A stretch of DNA of 64,000 bases, taken from contig NC_017167.1 of assembly GCF_000219875.1 (NCBI RefSeq), forward strand, positions 2,999,361 to 3,063,360, in the 5' to 3' direction. Under the pieces are notes generated by a model. It saw only the letters and a program-made list of their open reading frames with translations, searched no databases and was not told the origin of the DNA. Position 1 is the stretch's first letter. Every line of letters starts with the position of its first letter. Made by a program: the position numbers and the translations under genes. This DNA comes from Alicyclobacillus acidocaldarius subsp. acidocaldarius Tc-4-1. GTDB taxonomy: Bacteria > Bacillota > Bacilli > Alicyclobacillales > Alicyclobacillaceae. This document shows, piece after piece, positions 36,551 through 50,285 of this stretch.

Positions 36551-36607
36551 TCAAGAACTGCTCACTGAATGATGGACAATCATGTACATTTAGTGTATTT
36601 TATTTCT

Positions 36608-37195
36608 ATGAAACTCAGTGATTGGGCAAGAAAGAACGGAATTACGTACAAGACCGCCTGGCGTTGGGTCAAAGAAGGCCGGATGCCCGTGCCTTTTGAG
36701 CAAACTCCTTCGGGCACCATCCTTGTTCGCGAACCCGAGTCTTCCACGGCGAATGCCGTGGCCTTGTATGCGCGCGTGTCAAGCGCCGACCAAAAAGACG
36801 ATTTGGATCGCCAAATCGCACGGCTCATGGAATTTGCAACGGAACAGAAGCTTGTCGTGTTCAAGGCGGTTACGGAAATTGGTTCGGGACTCAACGGACA
36901 TCGACCTAAGCTCATGAAACTACTGTCCAATCCAAATGCCCATACGATTGTGGTGGAGCATCGAGATCGGCTCATGCGGTTCGGGTTTGAATACGTCGAG
37001 GCGGCTTTGGCGGCTCAAGGCCGACGAATCCTCGTCGTGGAGCCAGGCGAGGTCAAGGACGACTTGGTGCAAGACATGATCGAAGTCCTCACGTCGTTTT
37101 GCGCGCGGTTGTACGGGCGACGTTCCGCTCGTCACCGCGCCAAGCGCGCTTTGGAGGTTTTCAAACGTGAAGATTCATCGGGCGTATCGGTATGA
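36608..37195 (+). CDS. tnpA: IS607-family serine recombinase TnpA
   Basis: Site-specific serine recombinase of 195 residues that moves the element. Unlike most serine recombinases, the DNA-binding domain comes first: a MerR-like helix-turn-helix (ARKNGITYKTAWRWVKEGRM, residues 7-26). The catalytic domain follows with YARVSSADQKDDLDRQI, Ser58 being the probable nucleophile, and VVEHRDRLMRFGFEYVEAAL. Length and order are typical of the family, and the frame is intact. An in-frame TTG at 36569 would add 13 residues without a ribosome site. It overlaps tnpB by 29 bp. Confidence 0.9.
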   Translation: MKLSDWARKNGITYKTAWRWVKEGRMPVPFEQTPSGTILVREPESSTANAVALYARVSSADQKDDLDRQIARLMEFATEQKLVVFKAVTEIGSGLNGHRPKLMKLLSNPNAHTIVVEHRDRLMRFGFEYVEAALAAQGRRILVVEPGEVKDDLVQDMIEVLTSFCARLYGRRSARHRAKRALEVFKREDSSGVSV

Positions 37196-38321
37196 GTTGG
37201 CGCCGAATCGGATGCAACGGAGCCTGCTTGCCAAGCACGCAGGTGCGGCCCGATTTGCGTACAATTGGGGGCTTGCCAGACGCATCGCGCTCTATGAAGA
37301 GACGGGGCAAAGCACGAACGCCATCGAACAGCATCGGGAACTCAACCGCCTGAAGAAAACCGACTTCCCGTGGATGTACGAGGTCTCCAAATGCGCCCCG
37401 CAGGAAGCGCTGCGGGACTTGGATCGCGCGTTTCAACACTTTTTTCGCGGGTTGAAGGAGGGACGCAGGGTCGGATTCCCTCGCTTCAAGAAAAAAGGGC
37501 GCGACGATTCATTTCGCCTGACGGGTTCGATTCGCGTCTTGGACAACGCCATACAACTGCCTCGGCTCGGGCGGATTCGGCTGAAAGAAAAACCGCATGT
37601 CGAAGGCCGAATCCTGTCGGCGACGGTCAAGCGGGAGGCGGACCGATGGTATGTGAGTTTGTCGGCAGAAACGGAGATTCCGGACCCTGTTCCACCTTCG
37701 GGCGAGCCGGTGGATGTGGATCTGGGGGTCTCGTGGTTTTTGACGTTGTCTGACGGGACGAAAATCGAGGCGCCAAAGCCGCTCGCCCGATACCTTCGCC
37801 GCTTAAGGCGGTTATCGAAGCGGCATAGCCGAAAGAAACCAGGCTCGCGAAATCGGCGGAAGTCGGCGCTGGCGCTTGCTCGGCTGCACCGGAAGATCCG
37901 CAACATACGTCAGGACTTTTTGCACAAAGTGACGACGGAGCTCGCGAAAACCAAGCGAGTGATCGTCATCGAAGACCTGCATGTGCGAGGCATGGTGCAG
38001 AATCGAGCGTTGGCGCGAGCCATTTCGGACGTGGGTTTTGGCGAGTTTCGGCGAATGTTGACGTACAAGTGTGCGTGGTATGGCTCCCGGGAACTCATCG
38101 TGGCACCCCGGTTTTACGCGAGCAGCAAGACGTGCTCGGCGTGCGGGTACGTGATAAGCGAGCTGCCATTGTCGGCACGGGAGTGGACGTGCCCGGCGTG
38201 CAGCACGCGGCATGACCGCGACATCAACGCAGCGAAAAATCTTTTGAGAATCAGTACCGCGAGTTCCGCGGGAAGTGACGCCTGTGGAGATCCCTCTGAC
38301 GGGGCGGCCTTGGGCTGCTAG
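37167..38321 (+). CDS. tnpB: TnpB, RNA-guided RuvC nuclease of the IS607-type element
   Basis: Ancestor-type relative of Cas12, 384 residues. The RuvC triad looks intact: Asp185 in VDVDLGVSW, Glu269 in VIVIEDLHVRGM and Asp352 in HDRDINAAKN. The zinc ribbon has Cys323, Cys326, Cys342 and Cys345 (CSACGY, CPAC). A GIDLG is more common than the VDLG here. TnpB cuts DNA with a guide from the element's own right end and helps keep the element after excision (known for ISDra2 and others, inferred here). It overlaps tnpA and ends next to the element's right end. Confidence 0.92.
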   Translation: MKIHRAYRYELAPNRMQRSLLAKHAGAARFAYNWGLARRIALYEETGQSTNAIEQHRELNRLKKTDFPWMYEVSKCAPQEALRDLDRAFQHFFRGLKEGRRVGFPRFKKKGRDDSFRLTGSIRVLDNAIQLPRLGRIRLKEKPHVEGRILSATVKREADRWYVSLSAETEIPDPVPPSGEPVDVDLGVSWFLTLSDGTKIEAPKPLARYLRRLRRLSKRHSRKKPGSRNRRKSALALARLHRKIRNIRQDFLHKVTTELAKTKRVIVIEDLHVRGMVQNRALARAISDVGFGEFRRMLTYKCAWYGSRELIVAPRFYASSKTCSACGYVISELPLSAREWTCPACSTRHDRDINAAKNLLRISTASSAGSDACGDPSDGAALGC

Positions 38322-38380: not shown

Positions 38381-38927
38381 TACCGAGGACCGCGAGCATC
38401 TGTGGAAGCACGGCCGCCCAGCCGATGGCCTCAATCAGGCGCCTGGCTTCGCGCAGCGATGCGACAGGCGTGCTCGCGGTGAGCAGCCAGCCCACGACGA
38501 GCGCGACCACTGCCGCAATGCCGAGGGCGACGAGCGTCACGTTGGCCGGATCGAGCAGCGGCTCTGCCCCGAGGTGAATCCGGCCGAGTCCTTCCACGCC
38601 CGCGACGGTGAGGAGCGGGATGAGGACGGCCGGGATGAAGAACCGGTTGCCAAGCCGCGATCGGCTCGCCTCGCGCGCCTCCGCGCTCGCCTCCCCGTAG
38701 CTCCCGGTGCGGACGCCGCCGAAGCCGGCGAGGACGACGATGGCGATCACAACGATGCCGAGCACAAAAGGCGGGAGATAGTCCGCCAGGATGAACGCGA
38801 GGCCGTACAGCGCGTAGAAGAGCCCCGTGGTGACCCGGCGCGGGTTGGCGCGATCGCGAAAGGTGTACAGGCTCGAGAGAAACAGGATGAGACCGACGAG
38901 ATCGTAGGCGTATTGGACGCGAATCAC
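38381..38927 (-). pseudogene. DUF979 membrane protein, 5' part, split by IS607-type insertion
   Basis: Encodes the first 182 residues of a DUF979 permease with about five hydrophobic helices (YDLVGLILFLSSLYTF, GLAFILADYLPPFVLGIVVIAIVVLAGFGG, VTLVALGIAAVVALVVGWLL). Read on into the element, it gains 19 foreign residues and stops at 38322. The GTG at 38927 overlaps the DUF969 stop by 4 bp, so the two were co-translated. The missing C-terminus is at 36144-36550. Confidence 0.85.
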
Positions 38928-39631
38928 GGGTTGACCCCCTCTCCGGCGGATGGAGCGGCGTTCACGCCGCCGGACAGCCAGCGGCGAAGCCTGCGATCGA
39001 GCAGGTACAGCCGGACGCTGTGCACGATGAAGACCGCAGTCGCGGTGGGCAGGGCCCAGAGGCCCATGAGGATGGGGGTGGAATGGATGTGGAACTGATC
39101 AAAGACGCCCTTCATCAGGAGCACGGCGCCGACCGCGACGAACACGTCCTCGCCGAAGAAGAGGCCGACGTTGTCGACCGCGGCCGCGTGCGCGCGGATG
39201 TGATCGCGAACGTGATGGGGCAGCTCGCCGTATGCGGCTTCCGCAGCGCCCTCCGCCATGGGGGCGACGACAGGCCGGACCATCTGCGCCGGTCCGCCGA
39301 TGGACGTGAGGCCGAGGGCAGCGGCGACCTCGCGGATGAAGAGGTACGCATTCAGGATGCGGCCCGTGGTGGCCGCGCGGATCTTGGCAACGAGCCGCTG
39401 GGCCTGCTCCCGCAGCCCGTGGCGCTCCAGCAGGCCGATGACGGGCAGCGTGGCGACGAACACGGCCATGTAGCGATCTTTGGCGAACGCCGCGCCGAAC
39501 TGCGACAGGATGGCGTAAGGCGACTCGTGCGCCAGAAGCCCGGTCACGATCCCGGCCACGGTCACAACGAGCAGCGGATTGATGCGGAGCGCAAAACCCA
39601 CGATGACCAGAAGTACGCCCATGACGACCAT
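38924..39631 (-). CDS. DUF969 membrane protein
   Basis: Integral membrane protein of 235 residues with about six helices. Family-like segments include FALRINPLLVVTVAGIVTGLL, LPVIGLLERHGLREQAQ, AALGLTSIGGPAQMVRPVVAPMA and VDNVGLFFGEDVFVAVGAVLLM. DUF969 and DUF979 proteins occur together and are presumed to form one permease; the cargo is unknown. GAGGAG lies seven bases before the ATG at 39631. With its partner split by an insertion, this protein probably lacks its functional complex. Confidence 0.82.
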   Translation of the reverse strand: MVVMGVLLVIVGFALRINPLLVVTVAGIVTGLLAHESPYAILSQFGAAFAKDRYMAVFVATLPVIGLLERHGLREQAQRLVAKIRAATTGRILNAYLFIREVAAALGLTSIGGPAQMVRPVVAPMAEGAAEAAYGELPHHVRDHIRAHAAAVDNVGLFFGEDVFVAVGAVLLMKGVFDQFHIHSTPILMGLWALPTATAVFIVHSVRLYLLDRRLRRWLSGGVNAAPSAGEGVNP

Positions 39632-40006
39632 TGGACAACTCCTCGAAACAGAGCTGCGAATCGCCGATGCGCGATGGCGAACCCTCAGATATAAAAAGGT
39701 CAGTTCGTCCCGAAGAGCGGAAATCCTGCAGGAATTCTGCATGAAGCGGCGGGATGACAAGAGGGAATTTGTGATATGGATGCACCGGCACAGCCATGGG
39801 GCGTGCGATGGCGGCTTGCGCGAACCTCAATCGATGGCGAAAGCCCTGGGGGTTCGCGGACAGACGAAATTCCGCGCCAGGCCTGGATTTAGGACGGCTG
39901 AGATGGTAAAATGAGCGAGTGATGAGGTGCCGGATGGAGCGCCTTTATGAGAGGTTCGCGTTTTTCGCCCGGGAAGCCGCGCCAGAAGCGGGCTCGGGAG
40001 GATGGA
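39632..40006 (+). promoter_or_regulatory. CRISPR leader region
   Basis: 375 bp without a credible gene between DUF969 and the first repeat. Repeat degeneration, the repeat 3' end and the swept base all put the leader on this side. TAAAAT at 39907-39912, about 95 bp before the first repeat, is a possible -10 box; I see no matching -35. The divergent DUF969 promoter must also lie here. Confidence 0.6.
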
Positions 40007-41359
40007 GTTGATCCGCCGAGATCGTCGGCGGCCCCATTGAAGGCTTTTCGCCCAAAGGTCAGCACCTAACCTTCGTCCGTTGATCCGCCGAGATCGTCGG
40101 CGGCCCCATTGAAGGTTTATTCACCTGGCCCCGGCTCGTTTGAGAATGAGAGTTGATCCGCCGAGATCGTCGGCGGCCCCATTGAAGGCCGAGAATGGCG
40201 CGCGTGTGATGAAGGCCGTCTTCACGGGTTGATCCGCCGAGATCGTCGGCGGCCCCATTGAAGGCTCCTTCGCATCCAAAGACAAGATTGATGGCTGGCA
40301 GTTGATCCGCCGAGATCGTCGGCGGCCCCATTGAAGGACCCGACAATGCGAAATGTGTGCGATGGTATGGCACGTTGATCCGCCGAGATCGTCGGCGGCC
40401 CCATTGAAGGGCCAAGATCGTGCACAAGAGCGGCAAACCGTATCATGTTGATCCGCCGAGATCGTCGGCGGCCCCATTGAAGGAATGTGCACGTCGCGCT
40501 CGTCGTCACCAGCGAGTTCGGTTGATCCGCCGAGATCGTCGGCGGCCCCATTGAAGGGGCGCCGCGGCCATGGGGCTTGCCATGGGCTCGAAGTTGATCC
40601 GCCGAGATCGTCGGCGGCCCCATTGAAGGACATCGGATGCAAGCAGGCCCTCAAGGCCGCCGTGTTGATCCGCCGAGATCGTCGGCGGCCCCATTGAAGG
40701 AGATAGAAGGCCTTCGAGTTCCCCCCCCTGGATGTCGTTGATCCGCCGAGATCGTCGGCGGCCCCATTGAAGGACATAGAGTGCTGGACGATCTGGATGA
40801 TGCACTTGAGTTGATCCGCCGAGATCGTCGGCGGCCCCATTGAAGCTCCTCCCCGGTGGCCGCGAAAACCGCACGACAGCCGTTGATCCGCCGAGATCGT
40901 CGGCGGCCCCATTGAAGCAGGCATTCGTGCCATAACAGTACCCGTTCCTCACGCAGTTGATCCGCCGACATCGTCGGCGGCCCCATTGAAGCTACGGATC
41001 GTCCTGCTCCGGCATCACACCGTACTTGGTTGATCCGCCGAGATCGTCGGCGGCCCCATTGAAGCGGGAATTGCTCCAGGAGAGCCCGGATCTCCTGTGC
41101 GCAGGTTGATCCGCCGAGATCGTCGGCGGCCCCATTGAAGCCGAGTGATGGGGGCGAAGTCGAACTCTCCGTTTTCCAGTTGATCCGCCGAGATCGTCGG
41201 CGGCCCCATTGAAGCAGTACCTCCTGCGCCTCCAGCACCACCATTTCCACGTTGATCCGCCGAGATCGTCGTTGGCCTCATTGAAGCCCGAAACCTACTT
41301 CCGATGTTTGTGCCGCCTGGCGCGTTGATCCGCCAAGACAGTCGCCGCCCGGGCTAGAC
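40007..41359 (+). CRISPR. CRISPR array, 19 repeats and 18 spacers, type I-G associated
   Basis: Repeats of 36 nt start at 40007, 40079, 40152, 40228, 40301, 40374, 40447, 40521, 40593, 40664, 40737, 40810, 40882, 40956, 41029, 41105, 41179, 41251 and 41324. They begin GTTGATCCGCCGAGATCG and end CCCCATTGAAG, with a 7-bp stem (CCGCCGA/TCGGCGG). Spacers are 35-40 nt. Repeat 14 has CATCG in the loop, repeat 18 has GTTGGCCTC and repeat 19 is strongly degenerate, so the array ends at the high-coordinate side. The 37th base is G after repeats 1-11 and C after 12-18. The 3' ATTGAAG(G/C) resembles the usual ATTGAAAS crRNA handle and supports plus-strand transcription. Confidence 0.97.
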
Positions 41360-41506
41360 GCCCCCCTCTGAGCGTCCTCCGTCCCAAATAGAAAGGCCAC
41401 CGCCAGTCTTCCGCGCCTTCACGGACAAACCGCCGATGGCCTTCGTAGTATTTGGAGATCTGACTCAACCCACTCGTCCCAGCTGATTTCCCGCCGTTAT
41501 CGCTCG

Positions 41507-42520
41507 TCAGGTCGCTTCTACGAAGCGAGGCTGGGCTCGCGTAAAACTAAAGTACTTTTCGATTTGAATCCGCCGCGAAACCATCACCTGTTCCACGCCC
41601 ATGTGGCGCAGGCCGCCGTCGCGCAATCCGGGATGAGCAAGCATAAAGCGAATCGCCGCGAGAGTCGCGGGAGCCCTCCAGATAGGCCACGCGAGCGTAA
41701 ACCCATCTTTGTCGTAATGACCTCCGACGATCGTCAACCAAGTGCGATCTGCCCGATTTCTCGGTGCTCCACTGAGCACGGATATGCCGATGGCCGCAAG
41801 CCGATTGGCCCCGTACTGCGTCCCCAGCTTGTACTTGGGGTCCGTCGGGTTTCCTGGCATGAGCGCATATCGTGCGATTTCGTTGGGATCCCAGCGAAAC
41901 GAAGACAACATCGTGTCGTCTCTCCGCCAAGGGCGAAAGATGGTTTCCTGAACGTACTGTTCAGGTTCTTCCCCCGCACCGACGCGCCCTTTGTCTTCCA
42001 GCTCGTCCGGCGTCCGTGATCGCGGCACATCTCGTAGGCGCTTCAGAAAGTGTTGATGACCTTGCCCGAACAATAGGCACACGGGTGTGGGCGCAATCCG
42101 CGGGGATTCCGATTTCTTGCTTCGCTTGCCCTCCACCGCCCCGTCACTCATGAGTGCGGCTAGGAGATCCGCCCGATAGCGTTGATGCGGACCGGCCTTC
42201 GCGATTGCCTCACTCAGTATTTCGCGAGCCTCTTGTTGTGTGTAATTTAAATCCGCGTGATCGCCGAAGTCGTGATGGTTGGCCAGCTGCGCGATCCCGT
42301 CCACGGCCCGTTTTGCGATTTCGTCTTCCGTAGCACTGCGTCGGACCACAAGAACCGGGCGCAGAGGCGCCGGCGCCCACTGGACGCGAGGATACAGCCG
42401 TTCGCTTGGCTCGCAGTCGAGATCGACAGCTTCCAAGGCGCGCAAGAGGCCGAGGAGCGCGAAGAACGCAAGCGGATTGTCGGGTTCGAGGCCCTCAAGT
42501 CGAAATTCGTGAGCTGTCAC
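41507..42520 (-). CDS. Cas8-like protein of a type I-G (I-U) system
   Basis: Last gene of the cas operon, 337 residues, probably the large-subunit homologue (cas8u2/csb3 group). The start FRLEGLEPDNPLAFFALLGLLRALE resembles the family's N-terminal motif; WPIWRAPATLAAIRFML and QIEKYFSFTRAQPRFVEA near the end also look family-like. Known Cas8 proteins recognise the PAM and start R-loop formation. At 337 residues it is short compared with Cas8 of other subtypes. GAGGGGGG lies six bases before the GTG at 42520, which overlaps cas3 by 26 bp. The array lies 147 bp beyond its end. Confidence 0.65.
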   Translation of the reverse strand: MTAHEFRLEGLEPDNPLAFFALLGLLRALEAVDLDCEPSERLYPRVQWAPAPLRPVLVVRRSATEDEIAKRAVDGIAQLANHHDFGDHADLNYTQQEAREILSEAIAKAGPHQRYRADLLAALMSDGAVEGKRSKKSESPRIAPTPVCLLFGQGHQHFLKRLRDVPRSRTPDELEDKGRVGAGEEPEQYVQETIFRPWRRDDTMLSSFRWDPNEIARYALMPGNPTDPKYKLGTQYGANRLAAIGISVLSGAPRNRADRTWLTIVGGHYDKDGFTLAWPIWRAPATLAAIRFMLAHPGLRDGGLRHMGVEQVMVSRRIQIEKYFSFTRAQPRFVEAT

Positions 42521-45500
42521 GCGTGACCCCCCTCATCCTCTGCTCTTCCTCCGATACCCTGTGGTCGGCAAGCCGCAATACCGCTTCCAGATACGCGAGT
42601 CCCCAGACGCCGTAGCGCGCCTTCAGCAATTCGTACAACCCAGCCCAATCGACGCCGTGCCAGTCATACGCGAGCGACTGCGGCCCGTCCGAAGGTGCCA
42701 TCTCCACGGCATATCCGAAAAGCGTGCGGGAATACGGCTCGCCTGAGGACGAAGCCGGATCGTCGTGTGGAAAGAACGGGCGACCGTATCCGTGGTGTGT
42801 GCCAACTAACCACAGGACAAGTTCTGGATCTCCCACTTCTTGGAACCGCGGGTGCCGCGGAGCAAGCGCCACAGACAGCGCCTCGTGTCGCCAGCGATCC
42901 GGCAGCCCGACATCCGCACGCACATGATAGGGCAGCGGTCTGCCAGACTTGGCGAGGAGCGGGGCGTCCATGTCCGGGCCGAGCGGATCGCCAAAGGCCA
43001 AATACGATTGAAACCGACGATCCGCCTTCCCGAAATCGTGAAAGAGACCGGCAAGCTCGAGATCGCGTTGGATGGACTCGGGCAGGCCCACGGCCCGCGC
43101 GAAACGCAGAGCCGCCTCTGCCACGCCCTGGCAGTGAGCCTCGAGCTCGACCGGCACGCCGGTGATGGACCCAAACAGATCATCTTCCGTCGCAGGAACA
43201 GCCGAAAGCGCGTCGACGCCATCCGCTGCCACACCCCGGCGCGCTTCCAGCACCACGCCGATGGGGCGACCTTGTGCATCGCGGCCGTAGATGTCGAAGA
43301 ACGCCTGAACGCGCCCGCGCGCCGCGTCGAGCCTCTTTAGGCTAGCTCTCAGGTCGTCGTCGAGCTTGAACTCAAGGAGCCCATCCCGCACGTCTCGCCA
43401 ATCACCAGCCTCCGCCTCAGCGAGGATGGCGGCAAGCCGCGCTTCGTCCTCCTGGGCAACAAGCCCAGGAGCCACGCGCACGGTGAAATAGCTTCCTTGG
43501 AACGGCAGGTTCGCCTGCAAGCCGAGATCGCGCACCGGCGCTGTCTCCTCTGGGTTCCAACCGTACGCGTCCAACCCGCCGTAGCTCGCAGGCAACACGA
43601 TGGTATCACCCGGGCGAATGTCGTTTGCGGAAATCCATGCCGAGGTATCTTCGTCGCCCGTCCAACGGAAGACTTCGCGCGAAGATGCGCGATCGGCATC
43701 CAAGTCCTCGTCCTCCATCTGGGATGCGACATCCGCGAGGTCGGCGTCAGCGTTCGATCCCCGTCGGAGCCACATCTTGACCGCCCAAACGGGCAACTCG
43801 ACGGCTTCCGTCGATCTCGGCAGCACCAACTGAAGCAGCGCGAACACGGCGCGATGGCCGAGCGCCCTATGAATATCCGCTCGCCAGATGACGCTGACGG
43901 CGTCCGGCTGCCGCTTCGGGCCGTGCAAGTACAGTGAGACTTCCGGATCCGCAGCTGGCACAGGACTCGTGCATGCGAGCAGGTCCACATGCGCCGGCAT
44001 GAGCACGGGCGCGTCCTCTGTGGGAGAGAGCGCCTCGTCAGGAACCGGATCGGCTTTGACAAAGCTCTCAAACGCCGCGAGGCCAAAGTCGACTGTAGGC
44101 GCCTCCCCCCGGCGGCCCGCCTGCGCATGGCGCTTCAGATACGCCCACGCTTCTGCAATCGCACCGCCGTAGACTGGATCGTCCGTCCTCGAAGACAGGT
44201 CCGTGGGCGTCGCCACGATGGCGCCGAGGCACGGCGTGGGTCGGCCAGCCCGGTTCAAGCGCCCGAACCGCTGCCTCAGTGCGTCGATGGGCGCAGCGTC
44301 CGTGATGACGGCGTCGAGATCGATGTCGATGCCGACTTCGATGCACTGCGTGGCGACAATCGCTATTGGGTGCTCGAGATCTCGCCGCTCAGGCCATGGG
44401 CGCGTGCGGATGGGCGCTAGTTGGCCCGTCAACCATGCATCCCGATCCAGAGGGCGCGCGGGACCCATCAGGAGCATCGGCGTCCAGCCATCCGAGGCGA
44501 GCTCTGCGCGAAGCGCGTCAAAGACAGCGCGGGCCCGGCCCACGCGATTCACGACAATGGCGATAGCCGGACGGAGGACACCGTTTGCCTGCAAATACTG
44601 CGCCGCCGTGCGAAATTCGTCGATCAGCGCCTCCACGCGCCGGTTCTCCTCCGCCTCGTCCGCCTCCTGCAAAGATTCTTCCGGCGCGGACTTGTCCCTG
44701 GCCGTCTTCTTCTTGAGCTCTATCAATCGCACGGGCTTTGTCGCCGACCATCGGGCGCTTAAAATCGGGTGTTCGAAATTTTCGTCGTCCAACTCGAAGG
44801 CCTGATTCACACCCGGTTGCGGCGTCGCCGTCATGATGGTGTACCCCCATGGCAACTTGATGGTGGTATCCGTCCGCCACAGCGGCCCGTTGTACATGGC
44901 GACCCAAGACAGCGTCTGCCGAAGCGGCTCCACCAAATGCGCCTCATCGACGAACAAGTGACAGTCGGCGCCAAGGAGGCCTGCGTGCACGGGCTTCATC
45001 GCATCCGAAACACCGTATCCGCGAAATAAGAGGCGCGAACCCACCTGATCCACCGTGGAACAAAGCACCGTCGGCTGGATGGGCGTGCGCGCCCAGTCGT
45101 CCTCGCGGGGCACACCTCCACGCAACCGTCGAACCACGAGAGGATGCGAACTGCCACTCAGCTCCCGAAGCCTCGCCGCCACGCGCGCGGACACGGAGTC
45201 GGGCTCCGCCGCTTCCAGCTTCTCCGCCAAGCGTTTCGCATGTTGATAGGCATCGTCGACCACGAGCCTTCGGTCGACAATGAACGCCAGACGCACGGGT
45301 GCCCGCCGGTTCGCCCCCGCATCGGCCTCCAGAGCGAGGTAAAACACCGCGATGTCGATCACGGTCGTCTTTCCGGACGACGTCGGCAGTTTCAGGAGTT
45401 CCGGCCACGCTCCGGTCTCAACGAGACGGTCCAACAGGCGAACTTGCCAAGGAAACGGCTGATACCCATGGACCTCCTGCAGAAACGCAGCGAACTCAGA

Positions 45501-45521
45501 GCGATCCAAGGGCGTGCACAC
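42495..45521 (-). CDS. cas3: Cas3 helicase-nuclease with C-terminal HD domain (type I-G)
   Basis: Interference nuclease-helicase of about 1008 residues that unwinds and shreds target DNA after Cascade binding. The superfamily 2 helicase is first: Walker A KLPTSSGKTT, DExH motif LFVDEAHLVEP and motif VI QRFGRLNRAGRP. The HD nuclease is at the C-terminus (from about residue 820): GLFHDFGKADRRF, DRWRHEALS, GTHHGYGRPFF and LRLADHRVSEEE. Most type I Cas3 proteins have HD in front; this reverse order is typical of I-G/I-U. A full GGAGGTGA precedes the GTG at 45521; an in-frame ATG at 45536 is possible. It overlaps csb2. Confidence 0.92.
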   Translation of the reverse strand: MCTPLDRSEFAAFLQEVHGYQPFPWQVRLLDRLVETGAWPELLKLPTSSGKTTVIDIAVFYLALEADAGANRRAPVRLAFIVDRRLVVDDAYQHAKRLAEKLEAAEPDSVSARVAARLRELSGSSHPLVVRRLRGGVPREDDWARTPIQPTVLCSTVDQVGSRLLFRGYGVSDAMKPVHAGLLGADCHLFVDEAHLVEPLRQTLSWVAMYNGPLWRTDTTIKLPWGYTIMTATPQPGVNQAFELDDENFEHPILSARWSATKPVRLIELKKKTARDKSAPEESLQEADEAEENRRVEALIDEFRTAAQYLQANGVLRPAIAIVVNRVGRARAVFDALRAELASDGWTPMLLMGPARPLDRDAWLTGQLAPIRTRPWPERRDLEHPIAIVATQCIEVGIDIDLDAVITDAAPIDALRQRFGRLNRAGRPTPCLGAIVATPTDLSSRTDDPVYGGAIAEAWAYLKRHAQAGRRGEAPTVDFGLAAFESFVKADPVPDEALSPTEDAPVLMPAHVDLLACTSPVPAADPEVSLYLHGPKRQPDAVSVIWRADIHRALGHRAVFALLQLVLPRSTEAVELPVWAVKMWLRRGSNADADLADVASQMEDEDLDADRASSREVFRWTGDEDTSAWISANDIRPGDTIVLPASYGGLDAYGWNPEETAPVRDLGLQANLPFQGSYFTVRVAPGLVAQEDEARLAAILAEAEAGDWRDVRDGLLEFKLDDDLRASLKRLDAARGRVQAFFDIYGRDAQGRPIGVVLEARRGVAADGVDALSAVPATEDDLFGSITGVPVELEAHCQGVAEAALRFARAVGLPESIQRDLELAGLFHDFGKADRRFQSYLAFGDPLGPDMDAPLLAKSGRPLPYHVRADVGLPDRWRHEALSVALAPRHPRFQEVGDPELVLWLVGTHHGYGRPFFPHDDPASSSGEPYSRTLFGYAVEMAPSDGPQSLAYDWHGVDWAGLYELLKARYGVWGLAYLEAVLRLADHRVSEEEQRMRGVTRDSSRIST

Positions 45522-47013
45522 TCGACTCACCTCCATCCGGCAAGGGTCGGCAGAGTCCGAGCCCGAGGTACCGGCCCGCGCCGAGGATCACAGGGCCCGA
45601 AACGGGCTCCGCGAATTGGATGACGGCGTGCGTGATTGGCCGCCCTTGAAGATAAGGCGGGACTTGCCATCGGAGCCAAGCTGGCCGCTTGCGGGAGCGG
45701 AGAACCGAAGGCACGCCTTCGAAGGCCGAGTGGTCGGTTGCCAGAACGGCCGGCACCGGGCGATCCAGCCCCTCGACGCGTATCTCCTCCAGGCGCGGCA
45801 AGCCGACATGCGCACACGCGCGGGCCACTTCGTCCATGACCTCTAGCACGCTTGGGGCTCGTCCCGACTTCACATGGCGATTCAACACCATGGGCGTCAC
45901 CGTTGCGAAGATGCGGCTCGGCGAAGCGACGTAGACGGCCGGATCGAGCGAGCGCTTTGTCGGCTGTAAGGTCGGCGAGAGCTCCATCTCTCCCATGTCG
46001 AGCTTGACGCGCAACACACGCCGCCCTCGCCTTTCATCGACGGGACAAATGGCCCGGAGCGCTCGAAGCCAAGTTTCGTTCCGCAAAAGATCCACCTGCC
46101 TTGGCGGCACAAGCGCAAACCCCAACACGCGGCCATCCGCATGCGAAAACCCGGCGAACGGCAGAGGCACGATGGCGAGGTGAGCGTCGTGGGCGGGCTC
46201 GCCGTGGACCGTTCGGCCGCTCACCACTTCCGAGACCGGCGCACCTATCGCGCGATAGCCCTCGACGACGCGATCCCGAATGGCCTGGGAGACTAACGCA
46301 GCAGCACGGATATCCGGCATCAGCCCCCCGACGTGCTCGAGAACAAGCCAAGTGGTCGAAAACAAGGAGGCGGGCTCACCGCGCGTCGCAGTCTTCGCTC
46401 TGGGAAGGACCCACTCCCCCACCCGGGGACGGCGGCCGGCCTCAAACGACCGAATCAGCTCCGCCATGCGCCCGGGATACACCCGGCGCAGAGGCTCCTG
46501 CGCGTGATCGGGCACGTGCTCATCCGTCAAATACACCCGGCAACGCGTCAAACTCGAAGAATGGCCCACGTACGCCGTGTCCCGCGCGAGCGCATCAAGC
46601 GCCGACACCCATCTCTCCGTCTCTCCATCCGCGCCCACACCATGCCACAGCAGCCTGACCGTGGGAGAGACGGGCCTCACGGTGATGAACCGGCGCGGCT
46701 GGCGACTCCTGTAGTCGGAGATGTTGTCAGAAGCACGGCGCGTTTTGACCGCCGACCTATCGTTGGGCGGCACATAGGTCACATAGGAGGTGCGTTGAAA
46801 TGCGCTCGTCGCCTCAATCCGCGGAGGCTCCAGCGCCTCCAGCCATTCAAGCGCCATCCGCTCCTCAGGCCGCTGCCCCCGATACGCCCAGGTCGCCACG
46901 AGGGCGGAAAACACTCGGTCTGGTTGCGGCGGCCAGTCGGGCGCCTCGCTGTCTGGATGCAGCGCCGCAACCGAGCTGCCCGACAGAAATTCGATCTCCA
47001 AGACGAGCGTCAC
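45496..47013 (-). CDS. csb2: Csb2, Cas5-Cas6 fusion of a type I-G system
   Basis: Protein of 505 residues that I assign to the GSU0054/Csb2 family, in which a Cas5-type and a Cas6-type RAMP domain are fused. The N-terminus has the Cas5-like WPPQPDRVFSALVATWA; the C-terminus has the glycine-rich RAMP loop VILGAGRYLGLGLCRPL. The Cas6 half would cut the array transcript at the base of the CCGCCGA/TCGGCGG stem, and the Cas5 half would hold the 5' handle. I cannot assign the catalytic histidine with certainty. Start GTGA overlaps the csb1 stop by 4 bp. Confidence 0.85.
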   Translation of the reverse strand: MTLVLEIEFLSGSSVAALHPDSEAPDWPPQPDRVFSALVATWAYRGQRPEERMALEWLEALEPPRIEATSAFQRTSYVTYVPPNDRSAVKTRRASDNISDYRSRQPRRFITVRPVSPTVRLLWHGVGADGETERWVSALDALARDTAYVGHSSSLTRCRVYLTDEHVPDHAQEPLRRVYPGRMAELIRSFEAGRRPRVGEWVLPRAKTATRGEPASLFSTTWLVLEHVGGLMPDIRAAALVSQAIRDRVVEGYRAIGAPVSEVVSGRTVHGEPAHDAHLAIVPLPFAGFSHADGRVLGFALVPPRQVDLLRNETWLRALRAICPVDERRGRRVLRVKLDMGEMELSPTLQPTKRSLDPAVYVASPSRIFATVTPMVLNRHVKSGRAPSVLEVMDEVARACAHVGLPRLEEIRVEGLDRPVPAVLATDHSAFEGVPSVLRSRKRPAWLRWQVPPYLQGRPITHAVIQFAEPVSGPVILGAGRYLGLGLCRPLPDGGESSVHALGSL

Positions 47014-48230
47014 TTCTCTTCCTCCGCCTCTCCACCTTGGCCGGACAGCGCCAACTTCTGGCTCTCCATCACGATGGCGACTAACTTGTCCTGCGGTATG
47101 AGGCGAATGGGCTCTCGCCTGAGCCGGAACCCTGCGGCCTCCGCCCGCGCGAACGCTTCCTCGTAGAGCGCACGAGCCCCTTGCAGATCCAGCTTCAGAG
47201 TGTCCGTCGATCCGTCCGGGTGGACCACCTCCAGAGGAGCTGGTTGTTCGGGGACGAGATCGCAGCGCGACCGAAGCGCGTACCCGTGGCGGTCCTGTTC
47301 CAGCATCGCCAAGAGCCCCAGTGCCGCGAGCAGGACTCGTCCAGCGCGATCCCGTTCGTCCCCTCCAAAGCGCAGGCGGCGCAGCCCTGCGAAGCTCAGC
47401 ACGAAGGTGTGTTCGAGATGATCGCAGGTGATGCCCAACGGATCGACCGACGGGGTGATATTGCCGTGGTTGATCTCCGACGGCCGGACCTTCTTTGCAC
47501 CCTTGCCCGCTCGATCCGGCACGACATCCCAGTTCGTATCGCTCTTGTACACCTCGACCTTTCGCAAAATGCCCAGGGGATCGATGCGGCTGCCCGTGCG
47601 GCGGCCGGCCGTGCGAACGACGAGCGTTCCGTCTCTTCTTGGGATCTCATCCACAGGAACGCCAATGGCGACGATTTCCGAAGTGAGACAGCGGGCAAAC
47701 TTCGCGCCTAGCCCTCCGCCGCTCCCGGTCGAATGCCACGCGCCGAAGATGAGAGCCGTCGGAGCGATCTCGAGAATGGCCGTCGCGTTCCCCGGGCTTG
47801 CCTGCGCTAGACTCAGCCCCACCTCGCTCTCCATGAACGGCCTCCCGTCCAGAAGGCTGTCTCGCATGATGGCGTCGTAAATCCGGTGGGGCGCGTCGAG
47901 CGACGTGATCTCCGAGAGGCCCAAGAGGCCCTTGTCCCGAAAATCCACGACCACGTGCGGGATCCGAAGCCCGTCTTTGCGAATCGCCCGAAGGAGCGCA
48001 TCCTCCATCCGGTTCGCCTGGGACTGGACGCTATCCACCAACGCGCACCACACTTCTTCGCCGTTCACCATCCTGCGTTCGAACACGTGGCGGGGCGGGT
48101 CGTTCTGATACTCGCCAGGATAGGTCGGCGGGAAGATCTTGTCCCCCGGCCCCCCTGCGGGTTGCAGACGTTGCCGGCGGCGAATCGCGGCATCTGACGT
48201 CACCATTTGCGCAAGCGTTTCAACATTCAC
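47010..48230 (-). CDS. csb1: Csb1, Cas7-type backbone subunit (type I-G)
   Basis: First gene of the cas operon, 406 residues, the GSU0053/Csb1 group of Cas7 proteins that coat the crRNA spacer in Cascade. Segments that I associate with the family are LQPAGGPGDKIFPPTYP, DSVQSQANRMEDALL, IYDAIMRDSLLDGRPF, ALIFGAWHSTGSGGGLGAKFAR and FVLSFAGLRRLRFG. The GTG at 48230 follows GGAAGGGG at 8 bases. The frame runs on to 48515, but that stretch overlaps the IS1380 element and is not conserved. The IS ends 122 bp upstream of this start. Confidence 0.9.
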   Translation of the reverse strand: MNVETLAQMVTSDAAIRRRQRLQPAGGPGDKIFPPTYPGEYQNDPPRHVFERRMVNGEEVWCALVDSVQSQANRMEDALLRAIRKDGLRIPHVVVDFRDKGLLGLSEITSLDAPHRIYDAIMRDSLLDGRPFMESEVGLSLAQASPGNATAILEIAPTALIFGAWHSTGSGGGLGAKFARCLTSEIVAIGVPVDEIPRRDGTLVVRTAGRRTGSRIDPLGILRKVEVYKSDTNWDVVPDRAGKGAKKVRPSEINHGNITPSVDPLGITCDHLEHTFVLSFAGLRRLRFGGDERDRAGRVLLAALGLLAMLEQDRHGYALRSRCDLVPEQPAPLEVVHPDGSTDTLKLDLQGARALYEEAFARAEAAGFRLRREPIRLIPQDKLVAIVMESQKLALSGQGGEAEEEK

Positions 48231-48346
48231 GATGAATACCCCTTCCCTCTGCCCATCCCGGCCACCCGCTGGATGCCACGGCTGGGCTGCAAAACTCTGG
48301 TGATCTTCATCCACTTGCATCCATTTGACGCACACAGAAAAATTCC

Positions 48347-48351
48347 TTCTT
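48347..48351. repeat. Target site duplication TTCTT, left copy
   Basis: TTCTT directly abuts the left end of the IS1380-family element; the same five bases follow its right end at 50034-50038. The length fits the family. Confidence 0.85.
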
Positions 48352-48461
48352 CCTGAATCCGTGACGAGTAGGTGCGAAAATTGCTGAAGCGCTCGTGGTT
48401 GGTCCTGTAGAATTGAGATAGTTCGGATATCGGCTGTATTCAATCCCTCTTCACCATCGGG

Positions 48462-49814
48462 GTGAACCACTTGCGTTTCATCATTGAAGAATCCGATGAA
48501 GTCATCGTCACGCATTCGGGAATGACCCTTGTCGGCGTGTTGCTTGATAAAACCAGAATCGGCGAGCGGTTGAATCAGACCCGCCTGCCTGGTATGGGCA
48601 AACCGGATATTTCAAACCGGGACGTGGCATACTCATACATCGGGCTGCTTTGCCAAGGCAAGACCGACTTCGACCACATCGAAGCGTTTCGAGATGACGA
48701 GTTTTTCATGATCGCACTGCAAGTAGACAACGTGCCTTCGAGCCCGACGCTGCGCCAGCGTTTGGACATGGTTGCCGGAAAATCCGGCTGGGAGTCCATT
48801 CTCCGGGAAGAGTCCGCAAGGCTCCTGAGAGCCCTCGATGTAACTCTGCATCCGATTGAACTGGGCGTGCCTGCAGAGCGTCGAACTTACATCCCGCTGG
48901 ATATCGACGTCAGTCCCTTTGATAATTCCGGCACGAAGAAGGAAGGCGTGTCCCGTACATACAAGGGGCACGACGGATATGCTCCCATCTTTGCTTACCT
49001 TGGCCAAGAGGGCTACGTGGTCAATGTCCAGTTGCGTGAAGGCAGTACCCACGTACAAAAGGGCACGTCGACTTTCCTGCGGGAGAGTATTCAGTATGCA
49101 AGGCAGGTGACGGACCTCCCGCTTCTGGTTCGTCTGGATGCCGGCAATGACAGTGCAGAAAACATCGCCGTGTGTCGCTCCCAGGACAGCAGGGCCGAGT
49201 TCATCATCAAGCGCAACTTGCGAAAGGAGAGCCCCGAGGCCTGGCTTGTGATTGCCCAGCGACACGGGACATGTCATGAACCTCGTCCCGGCAAGAAGGT
49301 ATATCATGGTTCGCTGATGTGTCCCGTCAAGGGTGTATCCGAACCAGTTCGCATGGTGTTCGAAGTTATCGAACGGACCATGACGGCCGACGGCCAAATC
49401 TTATTGGTACCGGACATTGAGGTCAGCGCCTACTGGACCTCACTGCCGGATGACCCGGCTGTGATCATTCGCCTGTATCACGACCACGCCGTGATGGAAC
49501 AGTTCCACAGCGAAATCAAGACGGATCTGGACGCCGAGCGGCTGCCCTCGGGTAAATTCGCCACGAACAACTTGGTATTGCACTTTGTATGCGTGGCGTA
49601 CAATCTGCTGCGAGTGATCGGCCAGGAGAGTCTGAAGCGAAATGATGCGCCGCTACGAAAAAAGGCAGAACGTCGCCGGATCCGGACTGTGATTCAGAAC
49701 CTGATGACACTGGCTGCGAAGATGGTGCGACACGCCAGACAGACCAAGCTGAAATTGGGGTACGGGAATCGATGGCTCCCGGCATTTCGGCGATTGTACT
49801 TGGCCTTTGCGTAA
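48462..49814 (+). CDS. IS1380-family transposase
   Basis: DDE transposase of 450 residues. The acidic triad is likely in YIPLDIDVSPFDNSG (Asp), LLVRLDAGNDSAEN (Asp) and YHDHAVMEQFHSEIKTDLDAE with the conserved Glu of the HSE(I/L)KTD motif; GHDGYAPIFAYLG and LPSGKFATNN are also typical. The frame is full length and uninterrupted, so the element may still be active. It starts with a GTG at 48462 and has no strong ribosome site, as is common for transposases. Confidence 0.93.
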   Translation: MNHLRFIIEESDEVIVTHSGMTLVGVLLDKTRIGERLNQTRLPGMGKPDISNRDVAYSYIGLLCQGKTDFDHIEAFRDDEFFMIALQVDNVPSSPTLRQRLDMVAGKSGWESILREESARLLRALDVTLHPIELGVPAERRTYIPLDIDVSPFDNSGTKKEGVSRTYKGHDGYAPIFAYLGQEGYVVNVQLREGSTHVQKGTSTFLRESIQYARQVTDLPLLVRLDAGNDSAENIAVCRSQDSRAEFIIKRNLRKESPEAWLVIAQRHGTCHEPRPGKKVYHGSLMCPVKGVSEPVRMVFEVIERTMTADGQILLVPDIEVSAYWTSLPDDPAVIIRLYHDHAVMEQFHSEIKTDLDAERLPSGKFATNNLVLHFVCVAYNLLRVIGQESLKRNDAPLRKKAERRRIRTVIQNLMTLAAKMVRHARQTKLKLGYGNRWLPAFRRLYLAFA

Positions 49815-50019
49815 CGTGAACTGTGTCGAGCAAAGACACTGCATATGACCTGACATGGAAACCGAACCCAACCATTCACGAGTCCAGGGGGGACATCTGC
49901 CTTTTCGCCGCACTGGCTCCAACCGATATTCACAATCCCTAAGAAAATTGAATGTACATCCGTGAAATCGCAGTGAAGGGGCTTGCGAGAACACACATCA
50001 GCCTCTTTCCATCGGCCCT

Positions 50020-50033
50020 GTCACGGATTCAGG
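50020..50033. repeat. Right terminal inverted repeat of the IS1380-family element
   Basis: GTCACGGATTCAGG, the exact complement of the left end at 48352-48365, followed by TTCTT (50034-50038), the right copy of the target duplication. Confidence 0.9.
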
Positions 50034-50080
50034 TTCTTATCCTACTCCCAGGAATGTTCAAACGCCTCTCGACATGCGAA

Positions 50081-50112
50081 GGGCCCTGGGCGTTCGACTT
50101 CACCCAGGGCCC
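50081..50112. terminator. Hairpin downstream of the YjcZ-like gene
   Basis: GGGCCCTGGG (50081-50090) pairs with CCCAGGGCCC (50103-50112). On the plus strand ATTTGCGT follows, on the minus strand TTCGC; a moderately good bidirectional terminator. Confidence 0.6.
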
Positions 50113-50138
50113 ATTTGCGTAAACCGCATTCCGCGCGA

Positions 50139-50285
50139 TCAATACACTCCGTACGCGCCCGCGCCCGGTGCGCATCCGCAGCTCGGCGCCGGTGCAGCGC
50201 CCACTGCCGGGACCAGCAGGAAGAACAGCACAAAGATGATGAGAAACACCACAGCCCAACGCGTGTAGCCGCCAAACGTACCCAT
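50139..50285 (-). CDS. Small YjcZ-like membrane protein, possibly sporulation related
   Basis: Protein of 48 residues with a single hydrophobic helix (AVVFLIIFVLFFLLVPAVGA) and a Gly/Cys/Tyr-rich tail (SCGCAPGAGAYGVY). It resembles the many tiny YjcZ-type proteins of Bacillales, some tied to spore formation; the similarity is by composition only. AAAGGGG stands before the ATG at 50285, and a terminator hairpin lies downstream, which supports a real gene. The longer open frame upstream has no such features. Confidence 0.6.
   Translation of the reverse strand: MGTFGGYTRWAVVFLIIFVLFFLLVPAVGAAPAPSCGCAPGAGAYGVY

What the first reader, a model, noticed from the sequence alone, without database searches (positions are those of the whole stretch)
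40007..41359. A single swept base in the CRISPR repeats records the direction of array growth
The base right after the 36-nt repeat core is G in each of repeats 1-11 and C in each of repeats 12-18, with no mixing. If it were spacer sequence, this split would be very unlikely. The simplest reading is a 37-nt repeat in which a C-to-G change arose in the leader-proximal copy and was then inherited by the next ten acquisitions. It places the leader at the low-coordinate end, agrees with degenerate repeats 18 and 19 at the other end, and shows that at least about ten spacers were added after the mutation. The base is the last one of the crRNA 5' handle (ATTGAAGG versus ATTGAAGC), so old and new crRNAs would differ in their handle.
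Basis: partly seen in the sequence, partly recalled or inferred. Interest (0 to 1): 0.7.

Follow-up and report, generated by a model that had tools for sequence, protein, structure and literature searches.

The report
CRISPR repeat letter marks array age
One letter at the end of a bacterial CRISPR repeat changed and was then copied into the newer units, so the array shows which end is young; such inheritance is already known, but in this bacterial family that same letter seems to change more often than the rest of the repeat.

Summary
Confirmed. The array at 40007-41360 has 19 repeats; base 37 is G in units 1-11 and C in units 12-18, and unit 19 is decayed. Base 37 belongs to the repeat: the genome's two other arrays carry C in 28 of 28 intact units; for 22 C-type units with a protospacer the matching base is C in only 9, and a TTN PAM abuts base 38; in a relative one spacer sits beside G in one array and beside A in another. 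The low-coordinate end is young: it has a leader shared with the genome's other arrays, and the far-end trailer and oldest spacer are shared with another species. The general phenomenon, stretches of inherited repeat variants, is in print (PMC2886076). What I add: in 35 arrays of the order, base 37 has the most two-sided block changes of any column (7 of 20 without the window array), often C<->G. Whether it is unconstrained, hypermutable or sometimes captured from the PAM is open. Main rival for this one boundary: recombination, since the adjacent cas module was horizontally exchanged.

The parts
39817..40006 (+). leader-like block directly before repeat 1
   Evidence: about 190 bp aligned with the upstream blocks of the two other arrays of this genome (76% and 74%) and of relatives
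40007..41360 (+). type I-G CRISPR array, 19 repeats
40007..40809 (+). units 1-11, base 37 = G (first at 40043, last at 40773)
40810..41323 (+). units 12-18, base 37 = C (first at 40846, last at 41287); unit 18 degenerate
41324..41360 (+). decayed terminal repeat (unit 19)
   Evidence: 12 core mismatches; from the repeat of unit 18 onward the sequence is shared with G014
41507..42520 (-). type I-G Cas3-extension family / Cas8g-like protein
   Evidence: NCBIfam NF049934, 138.8 bits; PADLOC Cas8g, 304.4 bits
42495..45536 (-). cas3g
   Evidence: TIGR02621, 828.5 bits
45496..47013 (-). csb2 (Cas5-Cas6 fusion)
   Evidence: TIGR02165, 273.9 bits
47010..48515 (-). csb1 (cas7g)
   Evidence: TIGR02570, 75.8 bits

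Best explanation
The array belongs to a type I-G system with a 37-nt repeat whose usual last base is C. The repeat copy next to the leader came to carry G. Each acquisition copies the leader-adjacent repeat, so every later unit (at least ten acquisitions) inherited G while older units kept C. Shown: base 37 is repeat and not spacer, the polarity, C in the sister arrays, and similar blocks in other arrays of the family. Inferred: that one change in the leader-adjacent repeat and not recombination made this boundary, the count of acquisitions (units may also be lost), and the 8-nt handles ATTGAAGG and ATTGAAGC.
For: Clean single boundary, 18 distinct spacers. Sister arrays all C at base 37. Base 37 does not follow the protospacer in C-type units, 9 of 22; the same spacer beside G and beside A. 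Leader at the low end, shared trailer and oldest spacer at the far end. Similar blocks elsewhere: G002 at the same site G9 A1 C4, G030 G5 C55, G038 A13 C11 T2 C1. One cas1 match in the genome, 230 kb away, so a change of integrase would not by itself explain G in only one of three arrays.
Against: Both G-type units with a protospacer have G there (2 of 2), too few to exclude a link. Order is not always clean in relatives: lone G units in G014 and G026, and variants returning in blocks in G002 array A. The cas module beside the array was horizontally exchanged and the 187 bp before the leader have no match in the relatives aligned, so recombination has been at work here.
Confidence: 0.83

Rival explanations
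1. Recombination breakpoint: a crossover within repeats joined a leader-side G-type array to a trailer-side C-type array that came with the exchanged cas module.
For: Trailer and cas module 95-97% identical to G014 while most flanking blocks are 77-85%; module 67-71% against G010 and G008 whose flanks are 79-93%; module absent from the 19 kb of G002 around its array. Mixed blocks in G002 array A show that arrays do recombine.
Against: The 36-base core is the same on both sides, while the two other arrays of this genome differ at position 5, so they were not the partner. Boundaries that change base 37 alone recur in other species. No array holding either half was found among the relatives searched.
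Confidence: 0.12
2. Base 37 is spacer: the repeat is 36 nt, the base is the kept last PAM base, and the split records a change in PAM choice.
For: The first three protospacers found all matched base 37; both G-type ones carry G. In type I-E the last repeat base is PAM-derived (PMC8482600 section 9; PMC3890593 passages).
Against: C-type units: C9 G9 T2 A2 of 22, and of seven perfect matches three have G. The same spacer beside G and A in two arrays of G038. Base 37 stays fixed in 26 of 35 arrays.
Confidence: 0.03

Closest known systems
Stretches of conserved repeat variants in Escherichia/Salmonella arrays (Touchon and Rocha 2010, PMC2886076; passages read)
   Same: Runs of one repeat variant, read as proof that a new repeat is copied from the adjacent one.
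   Different: Other subtypes; no emphasis on the last base in the passages seen (their Table S6 was not read).
Terminal repeat polymorphism and array collapse-and-repopulate (reviewed in PMC8047081; passages read)
   Same: Repeat polymorphism used to read array history.
   Different: There the variants mark the old end; here the derived base marks the young end.
PAM-derived last repeat base of type I-E (PMC8482600 section 9)
   Same: Concerns the same position, the last base before the spacer.
   Different: Here the base is copied with the repeat, not taken from each protospacer.
Type I-G of Thioalkalivibrio sulfidiphilus (PMC9638904; passages read)
   Same: csb2/csb1/cas3 genes, TTN PAM; a cut 4 nt past the stem would give an 8-nt handle here too.
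   Different: 36-nt repeat there, 37 nt here.

Membership tests
Type I-G CRISPR-Cas | csb2, csb1 and cas3g effector genes | tested here: met
   All three over the curated NCBIfam cut-offs
Type I-G CRISPR-Cas | Cas8g large subunit | tested here: inconclusive
   337-aa ORF matches PADLOC Cas8g but NCBIfam calls it a Cas3-extension family
Type I-G CRISPR-Cas | Cas4-Cas1 fusion (frequent, recalled not to be strict) | tested here: not met
   The single cas1 of the genome is a separate ORF beside cas4 and cas2; it passes the I-C Cas1 cut-off and not the Cas4g/Cas1g one
Type I-G CRISPR-Cas | TTN PAM | tested here: met
   TT at -3/-2 in 20 of 24 protospacers, pooled over arrays of the genus
Type I-G CRISPR-Cas | Csb2 cut 4 nt past the stem, 8-nt handle | not testable with these tools
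   Predicted stem at bases 7-25 fits a cut after base 29
Inherited repeat-variant stretch | Variant forms one contiguous block on the leader side | tested here: met
Inherited repeat-variant stretch | Other state present in related arrays and older units | tested here: met
   C in 28 of 28 intact units of the two sister arrays and in units 12-18
Inherited repeat-variant stretch | Strains share old units with C and differ in new units with G | tested here: inconclusive
   No strain of the species was available; only the oldest spacer is shared, with C beside it, in G014
PAM-derived repeat end (as in type I-E) | Last repeat base equals the protospacer base of each unit | tested here: not met
   9 of 22 C-type units match; same spacer beside G and A

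The most novel reading that the evidence does not exclude
Base 37 of these I-G repeats is renewed by occasional capture. When a repeat is duplicated one base short, the first base of the incoming DNA (the N of the TTN PAM) becomes base 37 of the new leader-adjacent repeat, and later precise duplications inherit it. This would explain why the last base has the most block changes, why they run mostly among C and G, and why A and T blocks also occur. It predicts that in the oldest unit of each new block, base 37 equals the protospacer's -1 base.
Probability: 0.2. Interest if true: 0.6.

Novelty: new member of a known kind. Interest (0 to 1): 0.4.

Why it matters
It is a one-letter time mark inside an array: it orients the array, splits spacers into older and younger sets, and can expose recombined arrays. 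If the last base changes through imprecise repeat duplication, natural arrays would hold a readable record of integration errors.

Tried and rejected
Spacer or PAM origin of base 37 was my leading idea after (3 of 3 matches) and was dropped. An early idea that T never occurs at base 37 was dropped when a T2 block turned up in G038.

Protospacers of block-boundary or lone-variant spacers: 12 were (G000_C u11; G002_C u9, u10; G008 C61 u15, C73 u16; G014_C3 u7, u8; G026 u32, u33; G030 u5; G038 u9, u12); patterns for four boundary spacers found nothing in viral contigs. Outside arrays, only G026 u32 had hits: 11 places at 78-92% identity in what looks like a dispersed element, base -1 C in 5 and A in 6, none with TTN, so uninformative. 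The window array had no match in the phage and plasmid collections. Two further C-type protospacers outside the 315-spacer set: G028 u24 with TTG and G030 u7 with TGC; they would make the C-type tally 10 of 24.

Substitution spectrum: counted by hand changes from old to new (C>G 6, C>A 2, C>T 1, G>C 3, G>A 1, A>G 2, T>C 2). Decayed terminal units were left out; counting the last unit of G028 makes 18. C<->G is 9 of 17, but lone units count twice in this list, and in the strict set it is 4 of 8, so the argument is only suggestive; the rates compared were assumed, not measured.

Block count: rule is both runs at least 2 units, terminal unit dropped. 8 of 21 changes fall on base 37; 7 of 20 without the window array; 7 of 14 also without the mixed array G002 A; 5 of 12 also without G038 C148, which I found only through a shared spacer. 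L217 (G033, 3 units) was dropped before the counts. G008 C61 and C73 were counted as two arrays although they look like one split by contig ends. Further arrays listed (a capped list) were not added.

Full report
Observation. The array at window 40007-41360 has 19 repeats. The base after the 36-nt core is G in units 1-11 and C in units 12-18. All 18 spacers are distinct. Unit 14 has one private core change, unit 18 three, and unit 19 is decayed.

Setting. The window is part of a 3.12-Mb single-contig genome (G000). Beside the array lie type I-G effector genes. The genome has two more arrays with the same core except position 5: array A has C there, array B has T, and the window array has A. 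At base 37 array A has C in 20 of 20 and array B in 8 of 8 intact units. Cas1 had one match in the genome, beside array B, 230 kb from the window array, with separate cas4 and cas2 ORFs.

Related arrays. Genomes of the genus carrying this repeat were found by pattern (6 of 15 genomes, own included), and further arrays next to csb2 across the order (csb2 in 19 of 59 genomes; arrays). Species names come from matching contig lengths with the records: G008 is Alicyclobacillus fructus, G010 A. mali, G012 A. sendaiensis. The final set is 35 arrays and 625 units. Bases 31-36 of the majority repeat agree in all 35; the majority at base 37 is C in 27, G in 7 and A in 1. Base 37 has one state in 26 arrays and more than one in 9.

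Repeat or spacer? The first three protospacers all matched base 37, which raised a PAM-derived origin. I then compared 315 spacers of the genus arrays with prophage stretches of G012, G008 and G013 and 89 viral-contig loci. 24 of 315 had a protospacer at 80% identity or more; TT stands at -3/-2 in 20 of 24, so the TTN PAM abuts base 38. For 22 C-type units the -1 base is C9 G9 T2 A2; for two G-type units it is G in both. So base 37 does not follow the protospacer in C-type units, and the G-type cases are too few to judge. A natural test came from G038: one spacer occurs in two arrays, 35 nt long beside G and 37 nt long beside A. The base goes with the array.

Direction. About 190 bp just before repeat 1 align with the upstream blocks of arrays A (76%) and B (74%) and of relatives, while the regions downstream of the three own arrays gave no match to each other. 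At the far end the sequence from the repeat of unit 18 onward is 97% identical to G014 over 489 bp, with C beside the shared oldest spacer. G is therefore on the young side, and at least ten acquisitions followed if no unit arose otherwise.

Relatives in detail. At the same site, with flanks 83-92% identical, G002 reads G9 A1 C4. In G008 contigs C61 (C15 G6) and C73 (G16 C6, then a decayed G) look like one array: the end of C73 holds the tail of a C61 spacer. G012 C16 is G in all 9 units. In other genera G030 has G5 C55 without its last unit, and G038 has G9 A3 G9 C1 T1 and A13 C11 T2 C1. Against clean order, G014 and G026 have lone G units and in G002 array A several core variants return in blocks.

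A hot column. Counting only changes with at least two units on both sides, base 37 has 8 of 21, or 7 of 20 without the window array, and no other column has more than 3; after removing also the mixed G002 array and the array found through a shared spacer it is 5 of 12. Against a uniform spread over 37 positions the last figure has a chance of 1e-5, and about 0.002 if only 12 positions were free. The arrays are related and the rule is mine, so these figures are guides.

Why this base? By analogy with Thioalkalivibrio, where Csb2 cuts 4 nt past the stem and leaves an 8-nt handle (PMC9638904, passages), the stem at bases 7-25 puts base 37 at the end of the handle, opposite the N of the PAM. It may simply be free to vary, and in a type II system changes at the repeat-spacer junction are reported as tolerated (PMC6895254, passages). 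But positions 4 and 5 also differ between arrays and show fewer clean blocks within arrays, and C<->G, usually a rare mutation (recalled), makes 9 of 17 hand-counted changes, 4 of 8 in the strict set. That leaves room for capture of the PAM N by a duplication one base short, followed by inheritance. The deciding test on block-boundary spacers could not be made: no usable protospacer was found.

Rival. The trailer and cas module (41.3-48.2 kb) are 95-97% identical to G014, while most flanking blocks are 77-85%; against G010 and G008 the module is 67-71% and the flanks 79-93%; it is absent from the 19 kb of G002 around its array. Recombination has therefore touched this locus and could have made the boundary. 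The identical core on both sides, unlike arrays A and B, and the recurrence of boundaries at base 37 alone make this less likely.

Literature. Touchon and Rocha 2010 concluded from stretches of conserved repeat variants that a new repeat is copied from the adjacent one (PMC2886076, passages). Vink 2021 found PAM matches at -1 frequent only in I-C and I-E (PMC8482600, section 9 read). In searches, mostly seen as listings, I noticed no report on the last base of I-G repeats; many journals are not in the library.

Verdict. Observation confirmed, interpretation supported, general phenomenon known. The base-37 hot column in type I-G arrays of this order is the part that may be new.

Noticed in passing
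window 36569-38321: An IS607 element (tnpA and tnpB) lies 1.7 kb before the array. The genome has 9 full-length copies, and each of its three CRISPR arrays has one within 2 kb; the window site is empty in G002, G014, G010 and G008.
   Followed up: partly
window 41287-50155: The trailer and cas module are 95-97% identical to G014 against 77-85% in most flanking blocks and absent around the G002 array: horizontal exchange of a type I-G module at a fixed site.
   Followed up: partly
window 48230-49814: An IS1380 transposase ORF overlaps the start of csb1; similarity to three relatives ends at 48229-48230, so about the first 95 codons of the csb1 ORF have no match there. The insertion may have altered the csb1 start.
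   Followed up: no
G000:C1 2791669-2808883 (L229, L010): The genome has three csb2 matches but one cas1 match; two csb2 copies lie near cas4-cas1-cas2 and array B.
   Followed up: no
L060 (G002 array, 38911-40568): Core variants 1C4A, 19C and the plain form return in blocks, which suggests recombination between arrays.
   Followed up: no
L110, L200, L201 (G012 contig C15): One prophage contig of A. sendaiensis, with its viral-contig relatives, accounts for 23 of the 24 protospacers at 80% identity or more.
   Followed up: partly
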